A DNA stretch of 64,000 bases from Campylobacter sp. 2014D-0216 (GTDB lineage Bacteria > Campylobacterota > Campylobacteria > Campylobacterales > Campylobacteraceae), in the NCBI RefSeq assembly GCF_014931215.1, contig NZ_CP063089.1, forward strand, positions 1,545,501-1,609,500. The letters are read 5' to 3'. Within the stretch, counting starts at the first letter, position 1. Each line of letters starts with the position of its first letter. A program made the position numbers and the translations under genes. The notes under the pieces were generated by a model. That model was not told where the DNA came from, did not search any database, and saw only the letters and a list, made by a program, of their open reading frames with translations. Positions 55,245-64,000 of the stretch are shown here, one piece after another.

Positions 55245-57224
55245 ATGTTCAAAGTCAACAGTTTATCGAATAAACTGACCATGGTAGCTTGTTTTTTAAT
55301 AGCTATTATATTGATCGTAGTTAACGTGATCAATTATTTCAATTCCAAGGAAAACACTAGACATTATCTAGAAGAAATCCAAAAAAAGACAATGTTTGAT
55401 GTTAACTCAGCGTACAACATATACTCTAGCGCAAAAAGAGACGCTATACAGTCTATCGTTAAATTCGTAGAAAAAAACCCTAGAGTATCCTCTTCAGAAC
55501 TATTTGACATCTTAGGGACAGTAAAAGATGCTGCTGGTTTTAATGTAGTTTATCTTGGATTTAACGATGATGGTAAATTATATCAGTCTAATGAAGTTAT
55601 TAGAAGTCCTGAGACAGGATTTGATGCAAGATCAAGATCATGGTACAAAGAAGCAACTGCTGCAGGTAAACTTGTAGTGTCTGATCCTTATAAGAGTATA
55701 GAAGATGATTCTATAACCATTTCTTACACTGCTCCAATATATGTAAATGGTAAACTTTTGGCTGTAGTTGGTGGAGATTATAACCTCCATACTTTTGCAA
55801 AAGATGTACTTGTAATGGGTAAGTCTCAAAGCTCTTATGCTGCGGTTTATGATAAAGAAGGTAACATTATCTTTCATGAAGACAAAGAAAGAATGCTTAG
55901 AAAAACAGACCTAAGTATTAATATCGCTAATGCAGTTAAATCCAATCCCGATTTAATTGACCCAACTAAAGAAGAAACTTTGTTCTACGCTAAAGATAGC
56001 GAGGGCAATACTCAAGTAGCAACTTGTAATCAAACCCTAAATCCTAAATACATGGTATGTTCTATCACTAACGAATCAGTATATACTACCGCTGTGAATA
56101 AAGTTTTATTCCAACAAGTAATCATTGCTCTTCTTGCAATTGCAATTGCTTTAGTTTTGGTAAGATTTGCTATCACTAGAAATTTAAAACCTATTGCAGT
56201 GATCACTACCGGCCTTAACTCTTTCTTTGATTTTATCAATCATAAAACTAAAGATTCAGCTATGATTGATGTAAAAAGCAATGATGAACTTGGTGCTATG
56301 GCTAAAGCCATTAATGAAAACATCACTAAAACTAAAAATGCATTAGAACAAGATGCTAAAGCAGTAGAACAATCAGTAGATACAGCCAAAGAAATAGAAA
56401 GTGGTAATCTAACAGCAAGAATTACTGCAATTCCTGCTAATCCTCAGCTTATAGAATTAAAAAATGTTTTAAATGAAATGCTTAATGTATTAGAACAAAA
56501 AGTAGGTTCTAATATGAATGAAATTAATAGAGTATTTGATAGCTATAAAGCATTAGACTTTACTACTGAAGTTAAAAATGCTAAAGGTGGAGTTGAAGTA
56601 ACCACAAATGTATTAGGTCAAGAAATTGTAGCTATGTTAAGACAATCATCTGAATTTGCTTCTTTATTAGCAGATGAAAGTGGTAAATTACAAAGTGCGG
56701 TTAAAAACCTAACTGATTCTTCATCTTCTCAAGCTTCTTCTTTAGAAGAAACAGCAGCAGCACTAGAAGAGATTACTTCTTCTATGCAAAATGTTTCGCA
56801 TAAAACTAGTGAAGTAATTGCTCAAAGTGAAGAGATTAAAAATGTTACTTCTATTATTGGAGATATTGCAGATCAAATTAACCTACTTGCATTAAATGCT
56901 GCTATTGAAGCTGCACGTGCTGGTGAACATGGTAGAGGATTTGCTGTTGTTGCAGATGAAGTTAGAAATCTAGCTGAAAGAACTCAAAAGTCTTTGGGTG
57001 AAATTGAAGCTAATACAAATATCTTAGTTCAATCTATCAATGAAATGGGTGAAAGTATTAAAGAACAAACTACAGGTATTACTCAAATTAATGATGCCGT
57101 AGCTCAAATTGATAGCGTAACACAAGAAAATCTAAAAATAGCTAAAGATAGTGCGGCTATATCTGATAATGTTAATAAGATAGCTAATGATATCTTAGAA
57201 GATGCTAGAAAGAAAAAGTTTTAA
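55245..57224 (+). CDS. Methyl-accepting chemotaxis protein with dCACHE sensor (receptor 1)
   Basis: 659-residue transmembrane chemoreceptor: TM1 about 12-32, periplasmic dCACHE sensor about 35-280, TM2 about 283-307, then HAMP and a signalling helix with the hairpin-tip motif EAARAGEHGRGFAVVADEVRNLAERT. The sensor carries R131-x-W133-Y134, Y149 and D178, the spacing of the amino-acid-binding dCACHE motif, with Phe126 in place of the first Tyr. From GLNSFF (about residue 323) to the end it equals the next three receptors. Ribosome site AAGGAGAG. Resembles group A Tlp receptors of C. jejuni (Tlp2-4). No C-terminal CheR-binding pentapeptide. Confidence 0.92.
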   Translation: MFKVNSLSNKLTMVACFLIAIILIVVNVINYFNSKENTRHYLEEIQKKTMFDVNSAYNIYSSAKRDAIQSIVKFVEKNPRVSSSELFDILGTVKDAAGFNVVYLGFNDDGKLYQSNEVIRSPETGFDARSRSWYKEATAAGKLVVSDPYKSIEDDSITISYTAPIYVNGKLLAVVGGDYNLHTFAKDVLVMGKSQSSYAAVYDKEGNIIFHEDKERMLRKTDLSINIANAVKSNPDLIDPTKEETLFYAKDSEGNTQVATCNQTLNPKYMVCSITNESVYTTAVNKVLFQQVIIALLAIAIALVLVRFAITRNLKPIAVITTGLNSFFDFINHKTKDSAMIDVKSNDELGAMAKAINENITKTKNALEQDAKAVEQSVDTAKEIESGNLTARITAIPANPQLIELKNVLNEMLNVLEQKVGSNMNEINRVFDSYKALDFTTEVKNAKGGVEVTTNVLGQEIVAMLRQSSEFASLLADESGKLQSAVKNLTDSSSSQASSLEETAAALEEITSSMQNVSHKTSEVIAQSEEIKNVTSIIGDIADQINLLALNAAIEAARAGEHGRGFAVVADEVRNLAERTQKSLGEIEANTNILVQSINEMGESIKEQTTGITQINDAVAQIDSVTQENLKIAKDSAAISDNVNKIANDILEDARKKKF

Positions 57225-57278
57225 TTGATTGTTAGCAAGCTTTTAGCTTGCTAATGATTAGTCGTCGAATTTAATTTA
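56211..57278 (+). repeat. Long repeat, copy A (receptor signalling half plus 3' flank)
   Basis: 1068 bases from GGCCTTAACTC to the end of the flank GTCGTCGAATTTAATTTA. By eye identical, without gaps, to copy C and to copy D as far as the window shows; copy B is identical for its first ~890 bases. Confidence 0.9.
57232..57254 (+). terminator. Terminator hairpin after receptor 1
   Basis: TTAGCAAGC, loop TTTTA, GCTTGCTAA; part of the repeated 3' flank. Confidence 0.7.
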
Positions 57279-61978: not shown

Positions 61979-63952
61979 ATGAGAAGTGTTAAAATAAAAG
62001 TTGCATTGATTGCAAATATTATAGCGATTATATGTCTTTTGATTTTAGGAATTGTAACATTTGCTTTTGTCAAGGAAGCTATTTTTAAAGAAATTGTTAA
62101 TTCTGAACAAAATCGTTTAATTTCAACAAAAAATCTTATGGTTAATTTTAAAGATAGCACATCTGAATCATTAAATAAGCTAAGCGAAACTATACTTAGA
62201 CGTCCTTATTCTGACTTAAATTCACCAGAAAAATTAATGGACAACATAGGGTATCAACTACGCTCATTTAGAGATTCTGGTAATTTTTTGGCTGTTTATT
62301 TAGCGCAACCAAATGGAGAATTAATTGTAAGCGATACCGATAGTGATAGCAAAGGCTTAGATTATGGAACTTATGGAAAAGCTGATAATTACGATGCAAC
62401 AACAAGGGAATTTTATATAGAAGCGATGAAAAATAAAGGTCTATATATCACTCCTTCTTATATTGATGTTACAACGGGTCTACCTTGCTTTACCTACGCT
62501 ATGCCAATATATAAAGATGGTAATTTTATAGGCGTATTGGCAATTGATGTTTTAGTAAGAGATCTAGAAGATAGGCTTAAACAAATGCCAGGTGCTTCTT
62601 TTATCTATGATAAAAATCGTTTTTCATTTGTTTCGACTAATAAAAATTACATAGGAAATGATCCAAACGTAGGTATTGTAGCAGATGGATATAATAAAGT
62701 AAAAGATGGTGAACCATTTTTTTACACTAGCAAAGAGGGCAATGAAAGACTTGGAATGTGTGATAGTGTAGATGGATACACTGTATGTAACATGGCATAT
62801 ATTGATACTATTTCTCAATCAAGCAAAAAGATAGCTTATGTTCAAGCTATTATTGTTGTTTTTACAAGTATTGCTAGTATTATTCTACTTTACTTTATCA
62901 TTTCTTATTATTTATCACCACTCCAAACCATTCAAAGAGGCCTTAACTCTTTCTTTGATTTTATCAATCATAAAACTAAAGATTCAGCTATGATTGATGT
63001 AAAAAGCAATGATGAACTTGGTGCTATGGCTAAAGCCATTAATGAAAACATCACTAAAACTAAAAATGCATTAGAACAAGATGCTAAAGCAGTAGAACAA
63101 TCAGTAGATACAGCCAAAGAAATAGAAAGTGGTAATCTAACAGCAAGAATTACTGCAATTCCTGCTAATCCTCAGCTTATAGAATTAAAAAATGTTTTAA
63201 ATGAAATGCTTAATGTATTAGAACAAAAAGTAGGTTCTAATATGAATGAAATTAATAGAGTATTTGATAGCTATAAAGCATTAGACTTTACTACTGAAGT
63301 TAAAAATGCTAAAGGTGGAGTTGAAGTAACCACAAATGTATTAGGTCAAGAAATTGTAGCTATGTTAAGACAATCATCTGAATTTGCTTCTTTATTAGCA
63401 GATGAAAGTGGTAAATTACAAAGTGCGGTTAAAAACCTAACTGATTCTTCATCTTCTCAAGCTTCTTCTTTAGAAGAAACAGCAGCAGCACTAGAAGAGA
63501 TTACTTCTTCTATGCAAAATGTTTCGCATAAAACTAGTGAAGTAATTGCTCAAAGTGAAGAGATTAAAAATGTTACTTCTATTATTGGAGATATTGCAGA
63601 TCAAATTAACCTACTTGCATTAAATGCTGCTATTGAAGCTGCACGTGCTGGTGAACATGGTAGAGGATTTGCTGTTGTTGCAGATGAAGTTAGAAATCTA
63701 GCTGAAAGAACTCAAAAGTCTTTGGGTGAAATTGAAGCTAATACAAATATCTTAGTTCAATCTATCAATGAAATGGGTGAAAGTATTAAAGAACAAACTA
63801 CAGGTATTACTCAAATTAATGATGCCGTAGCTCAAATTGATAGCGTAACACAAGAAAATCTAAAAATAGCTAAAGATAGTGCGGCTATATCTGATAATGT
63901 TAATAAGATAGCTAATGATATCTTAGAAGATGCTAGAAAGAAAAAGTTTTAA
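61979..63952 (+). CDS. Methyl-accepting chemotaxis protein with dCACHE sensor (receptor 4)
   Basis: 657-residue chemoreceptor with TM1 about 8-30 and TM2 about 287-310. Sensor similar to receptor 2 (VTTGLPCFTYAMPIYKDG), with Y138, R143, Y146, Y161 and D190, but Phe145 where the motif has Trp, so ligand preference may differ. The signalling half equals the other copies. Start ATG follows AGGGGGA, which begins just where the repeated 3' flank of receptor 3 ends, so the gene sits directly against a repeat copy. Its own 3' flank repeats once more and runs off the window edge. Confidence 0.92.
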   Translation: MRSVKIKVALIANIIAIICLLILGIVTFAFVKEAIFKEIVNSEQNRLISTKNLMVNFKDSTSESLNKLSETILRRPYSDLNSPEKLMDNIGYQLRSFRDSGNFLAVYLAQPNGELIVSDTDSDSKGLDYGTYGKADNYDATTREFYIEAMKNKGLYITPSYIDVTTGLPCFTYAMPIYKDGNFIGVLAIDVLVRDLEDRLKQMPGASFIYDKNRFSFVSTNKNYIGNDPNVGIVADGYNKVKDGEPFFYTSKEGNERLGMCDSVDGYTVCNMAYIDTISQSSKKIAYVQAIIVVFTSIASIILLYFIISYYLSPLQTIQRGLNSFFDFINHKTKDSAMIDVKSNDELGAMAKAINENITKTKNALEQDAKAVEQSVDTAKEIESGNLTARITAIPANPQLIELKNVLNEMLNVLEQKVGSNMNEINRVFDSYKALDFTTEVKNAKGGVEVTTNVLGQEIVAMLRQSSEFASLLADESGKLQSAVKNLTDSSSSQASSLEETAAALEEITSSMQNVSHKTSEVIAQSEEIKNVTSIIGDIADQINLLALNAAIEAARAGEHGRGFAVVADEVRNLAERTQKSLGEIEANTNILVQSINEMGESIKEQTTGITQINDAVAQIDSVTQENLKIAKDSAAISDNVNKIANDILEDARKKKF

Positions 63953-64000
63953 TTGATTGTTAGCAAGCTTTTAGCTTGCTAATGATTAGTCGTCGAATTT
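62912..64000 (+). repeat. Long repeat, copy D (cut by window edge)
   Basis: Same as copy C through to the last base of the window, GTCGTCGAATTT. What follows is not visible; more receptor genes could lie beyond. Confidence 0.88.
63960..63982 (+). terminator. Terminator hairpin after receptor 4
   Basis: Third copy of the TTAGCAAGC/GCTTGCTAA hairpin, within the repeated 3' flank. Confidence 0.7.

What the first reader, a model, noticed from the sequence alone, without database searches (positions are those of the whole stretch)
55245..64000. Tandem array of four chemoreceptors with homogenised signalling halves
Four adjacent receptor genes share about 1 kb that looks identical base for base, including silent sites, while their sensors are strongly diverged. 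Copies A, C and D also share the terminator and 3' flank; copies B, C and D share 27 extra bases at the 5' side. Copy B breaks off at silent differences (59554, 59557). This mosaic points to repeated gene conversion with different end points. Such direct repeats can recombine to delete, fuse or add receptors, swapping sensors on one signalling module. C. jejuni Tlp2-4 are known to share C-terminal domains, but here the copies lie in tandem.
Basis: partly seen in the sequence, partly recalled or inferred. Interest (0 to 1): 0.75.

Follow-up and report, generated by a model that had tools for sequence, protein, structure and literature searches.

The report
Shuffled sensors on one signalling module
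Four neighbouring chemoreceptor genes carry different sensor halves but a nearly base-for-base identical signalling half, and across 13 related genomes the signalling halves cluster by genome while the sensors do not, so the signalling half is most likely copied repeatedly between genes and would act as a common socket onto which sensors can be swapped.

Summary
Copies A, C and D share 1,062-1,089 identical bases; B shares 887-915 and then differs at three silent sites. Four more copies lie at three other loci of the same chromosome. A tree of the signalling core of 70 receptors from 13 genomes clusters by genome with the fewest changes possible (12; shuffled mean 53.5); the sensors show no genome clustering (57 changes). 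Of 129 bases private to one genome, 105 sit at two or more of its loci. B's silent sites and 102 flanking bases are those of the receptor at locus l1, about 151 kb away on the other strand. Best explanation: recombination between signalling halves keeps them uniform in each genome and relocates sensors. PMC6433261 already reports shared Tlp C-termini, extensive recombination among Tlps and adjacent Tlp pairs in C. lari, and leaves open whether recombination explains the species-specific C-terminal halves. Added here: silent-site and private-base tests, the donor of B's tail, a displaced neighbour-gene stub and a sensor relocation map. Not shown: any recombination event directly, or the organism's name.

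The parts
55245..57224 (+). Receptor A (659 aa): dCache sensor + partial HAMP + MCP signalling domain; first position of the array
   Evidence: ORF; Pfam; sensor matches PctA best in PDB
57644..59680 (+). Receptor B (678 aa): dCache sensor closest to PDB 4xmq; mosaic signalling half with an l1-type 3' end
   Evidence: PDB 4xmq at 2.8e-26
59945..61915 (+). Receptor C (656 aa): dCache sensor; orthologous sensor sits at locus l3 in G021
61979..63952 (+). Receptor D (657 aa): dCache sensor closest to PDB 4xmq; orthologous sensors at the array in G020, l2 in G014, l3 in G026, l1 in G023
   Evidence: PDB 4xmq at 1.6e-35
56211..57278 (+). Shared module copy A: HAMP-region end, signalling half, hairpin and stub (1,068 bp identical to C)
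58640..59553 (+). Shared module copy B (914 bp identical to C)
60875..61969 (+). Shared module copy C: 60875-61963 identical to D, 60902-61969 identical to A
62912..64000 (+). Shared module copy D, running to the contig end
59554..59782 (+). l1-type 3' end of B: three silent differences (59554, 59557, 59611) plus 102 bases after the stop identical to locus l1; switch point lies between 59470 and 59554
57225..57278 (+). Hairpin plus displaced stub of the neighbour gene's 3' end (codes KFDD stop on the - strand) behind A
61916..61969 (+). Same hairpin and stub behind C
63953..64000 (+). Hairpin and the genuine 3' end of the neighbour gene (PepSY-like by eye, - strand), which continues from contig position 1
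54700..55089 (-). tRNA Ser-Cys-Leu-Gly cluster, left border of the array locus; present at this locus in 13 of 13 genomes
52534..54234 (+). ilvD, conserved left neighbour, found at 13 of 13 array loci

Best explanation
The signalling halves of these receptors are most likely copied onto one another, across four chromosomal loci, by RecA-type homologous recombination, while the sensor halves follow histories of their own and are found at different loci in different genomes. SHOWN: cores cluster by genome and sensors do not; most bases private to one genome occupy several of its loci; B's tail and 102 flanking bases match locus l1. SHOWN: the diversity signal changes within the HAMP region, so the sensor and much of HAMP stay receptor-specific while the rest of the signalling half is near-uniform within a genome. 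INFERRED: two processes run on the same repeats. Gene conversion rewrites a resident core to the genome's current version. Crossovers between cores insert, delete or relocate the stretch between two cores (intergenic + sensor), either as an excised circle that re-enters or by paired inversions. INFERRED: this would keep all receptors compatible with one shared signalling array while the sensor repertoire turns over.
For: Core tree of 70 receptors: 12 genome changes, the minimum, vs shuffled mean 53.5 (0 of 200 as low); locus label needs 42. Sensor tree: 57 genome changes vs shuffled 53.9; locus 26. Same-amino-acid codons identical: within-genome medians 94-100%, between-genome medians 76-89%, so selection on the protein alone does not explain it. 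Within/between diversity ratio 0.93-1.05 up to the window starting at -1037, 0.05-0.52 in windows starting -918 to -765, and 0.00-0.28 from -748 on. 105 of 129 genome-private bases sit at >=2 loci, 73 of 129 in all sampled copies. At -211, C occurs only in the four dispersed G000 copies at three loci, T in the other 67 of 71 receptors. B tail = l1. 4 of 21 tandem gaps lie in the array but begin with l1's flank (G046 264, G000 102, G021 77, G009 46 exact bases); the three G026 gaps, at l1 and l2, resemble each other at 91-94%. 7 of 9 sensor families found in more than one genome occur at more than one locus. G001 holds one receptor at both array and l3, 2,061 bp at 98.8%. G020/G025 l1 sensors are 97.7% identical while cores are 90.3% and ilvD 91.1%. 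RecA and a ComEC-type gene are present, MutL gives no match, MutS1 only below cut-off.
Against: No recombination event was observed directly. 11 of 21 tandem gaps match no terminal flank sampled in the same genome, 4 carry the array's own flank and 2 match only 33-37 bases. Upstream regions of the same sensor at different loci are only slightly more alike than controls in later positions (median score 24.0, n=14, vs 20.5, n=121), and same sensor at the same locus scores lower (16.8, n=8), so co-travel of the promoter is not shown. First-position sensors keep their locus more often (43 of 49 vs 10 of 21), so not every sensor is mobile. G046 is not one clade, and single within-genome pairs fall to 86% at same-amino-acid codons (G046). 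Interspecies passage of a sensor rests on one pair of 208; in 206 of 208 pairs the sensor is less alike than the core. Exact identity of A, C and D in this one assembly could be inflated by consensus building.
Confidence: 0.85

Rival explanations
1. Recent duplication: the receptors arose by recent copying of whole genes inside each species and the sensors then diverged fast.
For: True in a few cases: G046_l2_2/l2_3 and G001_array_1/l3_1 have identical sensors.
Against: Sensor families are shared across species (9 families in more than one genome) and sensors show no genome clustering (57 changes vs shuffled 53.9), so most sensors split before the species did. The sensor tree is a quick one with long branches that the program flags.
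Confidence: 0.04
2. Strong selection on the signalling protein and codon use keeps the halves alike without any DNA exchange.
For: Signalling domains are under strong constraint (stated in PMC5080441, passages read).
Against: Same-amino-acid codons differ between species (identity medians 76-89%) yet match within genomes (medians 94-100%); the match runs past the stop codon into 48-102 bases.
Confidence: 0.03
3. Assembly artefact: a collapsed repeat consensus was pasted into several places, so the array or its identity is not real.
For: The contig starts and ends exactly at the repeat border, as a cut at an assembly-graph edge would give.
Against: Copy-specific bases survive (B's three sites, -211, flanks). 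12 further genomes and three more distant ones (G006, G015, G024) show the same pattern. The neighbour gene reads through the join at full length.
Confidence: 0.05
4. The sensors are moved by a dedicated site-specific system rather than by general homologous recombination.
For: The change from diverged to uniform falls at one part of the gene, the HAMP region.
Against: End points differ from copy to copy, and B's switch lies inside the signalling half. By eye, the ORFs (50-64 kb only) include no recombinase; no integrase family was searched for.
Confidence: 0.03

Closest known systems
C. jejuni/C. coli/C. lari Group A Tlps with shared C-termini (PMC6433261; abstract, sections 12, 27, 28, 29 and found passages read)
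   Same: High identity of C-terminal halves, variable sensors, extensive recombination among Tlps (Splitstree, C. lari types included), Tlps at a limited set of places 'possibly by recombination', adjacent pairs in C. lari, three C. lari Tlps beside tRNA-Gly, C-termini that follow species.
   Different: Four receptors in one array; homogenisation tested at silent sites across four loci and 13 genomes; donor of a mosaic tail identified. The paper leaves open whether recombination explains the species-specific C-termini.
Tlp2/Tlp3/Tlp4 paralogue family (PMC9769880, passages read)
   Same: Identical signalling domains with ~30% identical dCache sensors; their signalling-domain tree follows the genome tree and the sensor tree does not.
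   Different: They explain this by duplications and different rates; 'gene conversion' occurs once there and means turning into a pseudogene.
CcrG/Tlp11 domain swap (PMC5080441, passages read)
   Same: Sensor and signalling halves with different nearest relatives.
   Different: A single proposed swap; here the pattern covers nearly all sampled receptors.
Campylobacter Tlp-bounded invertible element (PMC6433261 section 28)
   Same: Proposed recombination between Tlp C-terminal repeats; l1 and the array here are on opposite strands.
   Different: No inversion was looked for here; the signature is exchanged tails, flanks and sensors.
Concerted evolution of repeated genes such as rRNA operons (recalled)
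   Same: Copies more alike within a genome than between species.
   Different: Only half of each gene is homogenised; the other half diverges.

Membership tests
Group A (Tlp-type) dCache chemoreceptor | Periplasmic dCache sensor followed by cytoplasmic MCP signalling domain | tested here: met
   dCache_1 and MCPsignal above cut-off in 4 of 4 proteins
Group A (Tlp-type) dCache chemoreceptor | HAMP between the two | tested here: inconclusive
   Whole-protein score about 30 bits over the cut-off of 25, but only profile positions 29-47 of 53 match and no stretch passes on its own
Group A (Tlp-type) dCache chemoreceptor | Mediates chemotaxis through CheW/CheV/CheA | not testable with these tools
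   Needs an experiment
Concerted evolution by gene conversion | Paralogues within a genome closer than orthologues between species | tested here: met
   12 of 13 genomes one side of a branch, two of them as identical rows; G046 needs two changes
Concerted evolution by gene conversion | Holds at silent sites and in flanking DNA | tested here: met
Concerted evolution by gene conversion | Mosaic tracts with differing end points | tested here: met
   B switches between 59470 and 59554; blocks -1016 to -929 (l1, l3_1) and -844 to -754 (l2, l3_2)
Concerted evolution by gene conversion | RecA dependence | not testable with these tools
   A RecA gene is present; dependence needs an experiment
Tlp-bounded invertible element | Segment between inverted Tlp repeats found in both orientations | not tested
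   One genome per species held; orientation not compared

The most novel reading that the evidence does not exclude
The signalling half is a homology-driven docking platform: sensors lie as cassettes between two copies of it, circulate between loci and even between species, and any incoming receptor has its signalling half rewritten to the resident version, giving the cell a self-harmonising, swappable sensory repertoire without a dedicated recombinase.
Probability: 0.5. Interest if true: 0.78.

Novelty: new variant of a known kind. Interest (0 to 1): 0.6.

Why it matters
PMC6433261 asks whether recombination explains why C-terminal halves of Tlps are species-specific; the silent-site tree, private-base and flank tests here speak for yes in this group. 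They show a protein family split into a half that evolves nearly as one unit per genome and a half that diverges, and suggest a route by which sensory range could change in one recombination step while signalling compatibility is kept. They also warn that receptor orthology and trees built from whole Tlp sequences can mislead, because the two halves have different histories.

Tried and rejected
Recent duplication, selection alone and assembly artefact were considered and rejected (see rivals). Co-travel of the upstream region with the sensor was not borne out clearly. Literature: searches; for most listed papers I saw only the listing. None of the titles or abstract starts reports gene conversion or concerted evolution of bacterial receptor signalling halves, but PMC6433261 does report recombination among Tlps. 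Only openly licensed papers are held, so absence in print is not shown.

Rows dropped or not fetched: G014_l4x_1 (a diverged receptor, 85% to the others) was left out, but is. Receptors were picked as ORFs of 300 aa or more with one conserved signalling motif; a blastn check over the fetched lari-like loci found one copy missed, the broken first array copy of G009 (L038 7785-8794), which was used only as a gap neighbour. One search scored at most 9 places a genome and its list was cut, so other receptors of the 12 relatives were not fetched; G022 is in fragments and only 3 of its copies were taken. G037, whose matches are cut by a contig end, was not taken. The G020 stretch guessed for l2 (L060) gave no receptor. 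G021_l4x_1 is a truncated copy kept in the trees.
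Full report
WHAT IS THERE. The last 9 kb of the window hold four intact chemoreceptor genes in the same direction: A 55245-57224, B 57644-59680, C 59945-61915, D 61979-63952. All have dCache_1 and MCPsignal domains above cut-off, with a partial HAMP match. The sensors share 22-39% protein identity. The B and D sensors match the solved ligand-binding domain 4xmq best (PMC9769880, names 4XMQ as the Tlp3 structure). 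A matches PctA best, and C matches 6iop and PctC best. The signalling halves are identical over 1,062-1,089 bp among A, C and D. B is identical to them over 887-915 bp and then differs at three third-position sites.

THE WINDOW EDGE. The window is the end of a 1,609,500-bp single contig. The contig ends at the very base where D's flank would part from A and C. Contig position 1 continues a gene on the minus strand whose last codons (KFDD, stop) lie in D's 3' flank. Read across the join, the protein is 139 aa; it matches at full length in 10 of the 12 relatives, at 100% in G042 and 90.6-96.4% in the other nine. This is consistent with a closed circle. Behind A and C lies a copy of this hairpin and of the neighbour gene's final bases, without the gene. 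Those stubs are displaced pieces of the array's right border; I infer that the A and C flanks were copied from the border position.

THE SAME GENOME HOLDS EIGHT COPIES. Four more copies lie at three loci: l1 (~147 kb, minus strand), l2 (~1,164 kb) and l3 (two, ~1,374-1,377 kb, minus strand). Their '97%' is uneven. From position -753 to the stop (counted back from the end of the gene) only eight sites vary among all eight copies (-622, -211, -127, -124, -123, -70, -8, -7). Most other differences sit in two blocks, -1016 to -929 shared by l1 and l3_1, and -844 to -754 shared by l2 and l3_2. B's three sites carry the bases of l1 and l3_1, and the 102 bases after its stop are identical to l1; no other terminal flank in the genome matches exactly for more than 5 bases (l2 for 41 at 92% or more). 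Upstream, B carries the array's base at -211. So B switches from array type to l1 type between 59470 and 59554. The two 3' ends lie about 151 kb apart around the circle (from coordinates).

RELATED GENOMES. All 49 genomes of the genus that were searched, the own one included, have a match (at most 9 places scored for each). I fetched receptor loci from 12 relatives with long, close matches. With the own genome this gives 13 genomes and 70 receptors after dropping one diverged receptor; other receptors of these genomes were not fetched. The array locus is the same place in all 13: ilvD and the tRNA quartet on the left in 13 of 13, the PepSY-like gene on the right in 11 of 13. Numbers of intact receptors there are 4 (own), 3 (one genome), 2 (four genomes) and 1 (seven genomes, of which G009 also has a broken first copy).

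THE TEST. If copies evolve apart, a receptor's core should be closest to the same receptor in other species. It is not. On a maximum-likelihood tree of the last 750 coding bases, the genome label needs 12 changes, the least possible for 13 genomes (shuffled mean 53.5, 0 of 200 as low); 12 of 13 genomes are one side of a branch, G046 needs two changes; the locus label needs 42. On the sensor tree (quick method, simple model, several long branches flagged by the program) the genome label needs 57 changes, no fewer than by chance (53.9), and the locus label 26. Codons for the same amino acid are identical in 94-100% (medians) within genomes and 76-89% (medians) between; single within-genome pairs go down to 86% (G046). 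The ratio of within- to between-genome diversity is 0.93-1.05 up to the window starting at -1037, falls through the HAMP region, is 0.05-0.52 in windows from -918 to -765, and 0.00-0.28 from -748 on. Of 129 bases in the last 918 that occur in one genome only, 105 occupy at least two of its loci and 73 all its sampled copies. At -211 the base C occurs only in the four dispersed copies of this genome, at three loci, against T in the other 67 of 71 receptors. That is most simply one new silent mutation that spread between distant loci. The pattern also holds in three more distant genomes, within which the sampled signalling halves are 97-100% identical (G006 2, G015 3, G024 7 copies).

SENSORS MOVE. 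With sensors grouped at 60% protein identity, 7 of the 9 families found in more than one genome occur at more than one locus. The sensors of B, C and D each have orthologues at other loci in relatives. Sensors in first position have an orthologue at the same locus in another genome in 43 of 49 cases, later ones in 10 of 21 (Fisher p = 0.0007, rows not independent). This is expected if the stretch between two cores is the mobile part. If a cassette leaves one locus and enters another by recombination in the core, the gap in front of it should start with the old locus's 3' flank. In 4 of 21 gaps this is seen (array gaps starting with 46-264 exact bases of l1's flank in G009, G021, G000 and G046). 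4 start with the array's own flank, 2 have only short matches (33-37) and 11 match no terminal flank sampled in the same genome; among those 11, the three G026 gaps at l1 and l2 resemble each other at 91-94%. G001 has one receptor at both array and l3 over 2,061 bp at 98.8%, from about 70 bp before the start codon to 3 bp past the stop. In G020 and G025 the l1 sensors are 97.7% identical although cores (90.3%) and ilvD (91.1%) are at the usual species distance: a sensor most likely passed between species and its signalling half was rewritten to the resident type. This is one pair of 208; in 206 of 208 the sensor is less alike than the core. The upstream region does not clearly travel with the sensor.

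MECHANISM. I infer gene conversion plus crossovers between cores, carried out by RecA, with natural uptake of DNA as a possible source. A RecA and a ComEC-type gene are present, MutL gives no match and MutS1 only a sub-threshold one, which fits tolerant recombination between imperfect repeats. Circle excision/re-entry and paired inversions predict the same scars and are not separated here. Functionally, uniform cores would keep every receptor compatible with one signalling array (inference from general chemotaxis knowledge).

KNOWN AND NEW. PMC6433261 (abstract, sections 12, 27, 28, 29 and found passages read) reports shared C-termini, extensive recombination among Tlps including C. lari types, a limited set of Tlp locations 'possibly by recombination', and five adjacent Tlp pairs in C. 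lari, and asks whether recombination has a role in the species-specific C-termini. PMC9769880 (passages read) finds that signalling-domain trees follow the genome tree and sensors do not. PMC5080441 (passages read) proposes a domain swap for Tlp11. So the kind is known. The array of four, the silent-site and private-base tests, the donor of B's tail, the stub and the relocation map are additions as far as my reading goes. The organism's name is not established by any search.

Noticed in passing
L059 (G046:C1:1050000-1066000) 7442-11663: Two head-to-tail receptors with identical sensors, each preceded by an identical 34-bp gap; the cores are 99.3% identical over the last 750 bases. It looks like a recent in-place tandem duplication.
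   Followed up: partly
L038 (G009:C1:1452000-1470000) 7785-8794: The first array position in G009 carries a signalling half without an intact ORF in my list, so that receptor appears broken there.
   Followed up: partly
L078 (G021:C1:400000-411000) 4635-6161: A shortened copy (508 aa ORF) of the A-type receptor sits at a fifth locus near a tRNA cluster.
   Followed up: partly
window 57279-57643: About 365 bp between A and B with no clear match to another receptor gap or flank in the set beyond a 49-base piece; longer than most gaps, origin unknown.
   Followed up: no
L021 (G000:C1:1541500-1546500) 1951-4032, reaching the first ~31 bases of the window: Another receptor (693 aa) whose signalling half matches the shared core only in part (86% over 363 bases); it appears to lie outside the homogenised set.
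   Followed up: no
L020 and L019: positions -1016 to -929 before the gene end: The l1 and l3_1 receptors share an alternative HAMP-region block and related sensors, suggesting that HAMP travels with the sensor type.
   Followed up: partly
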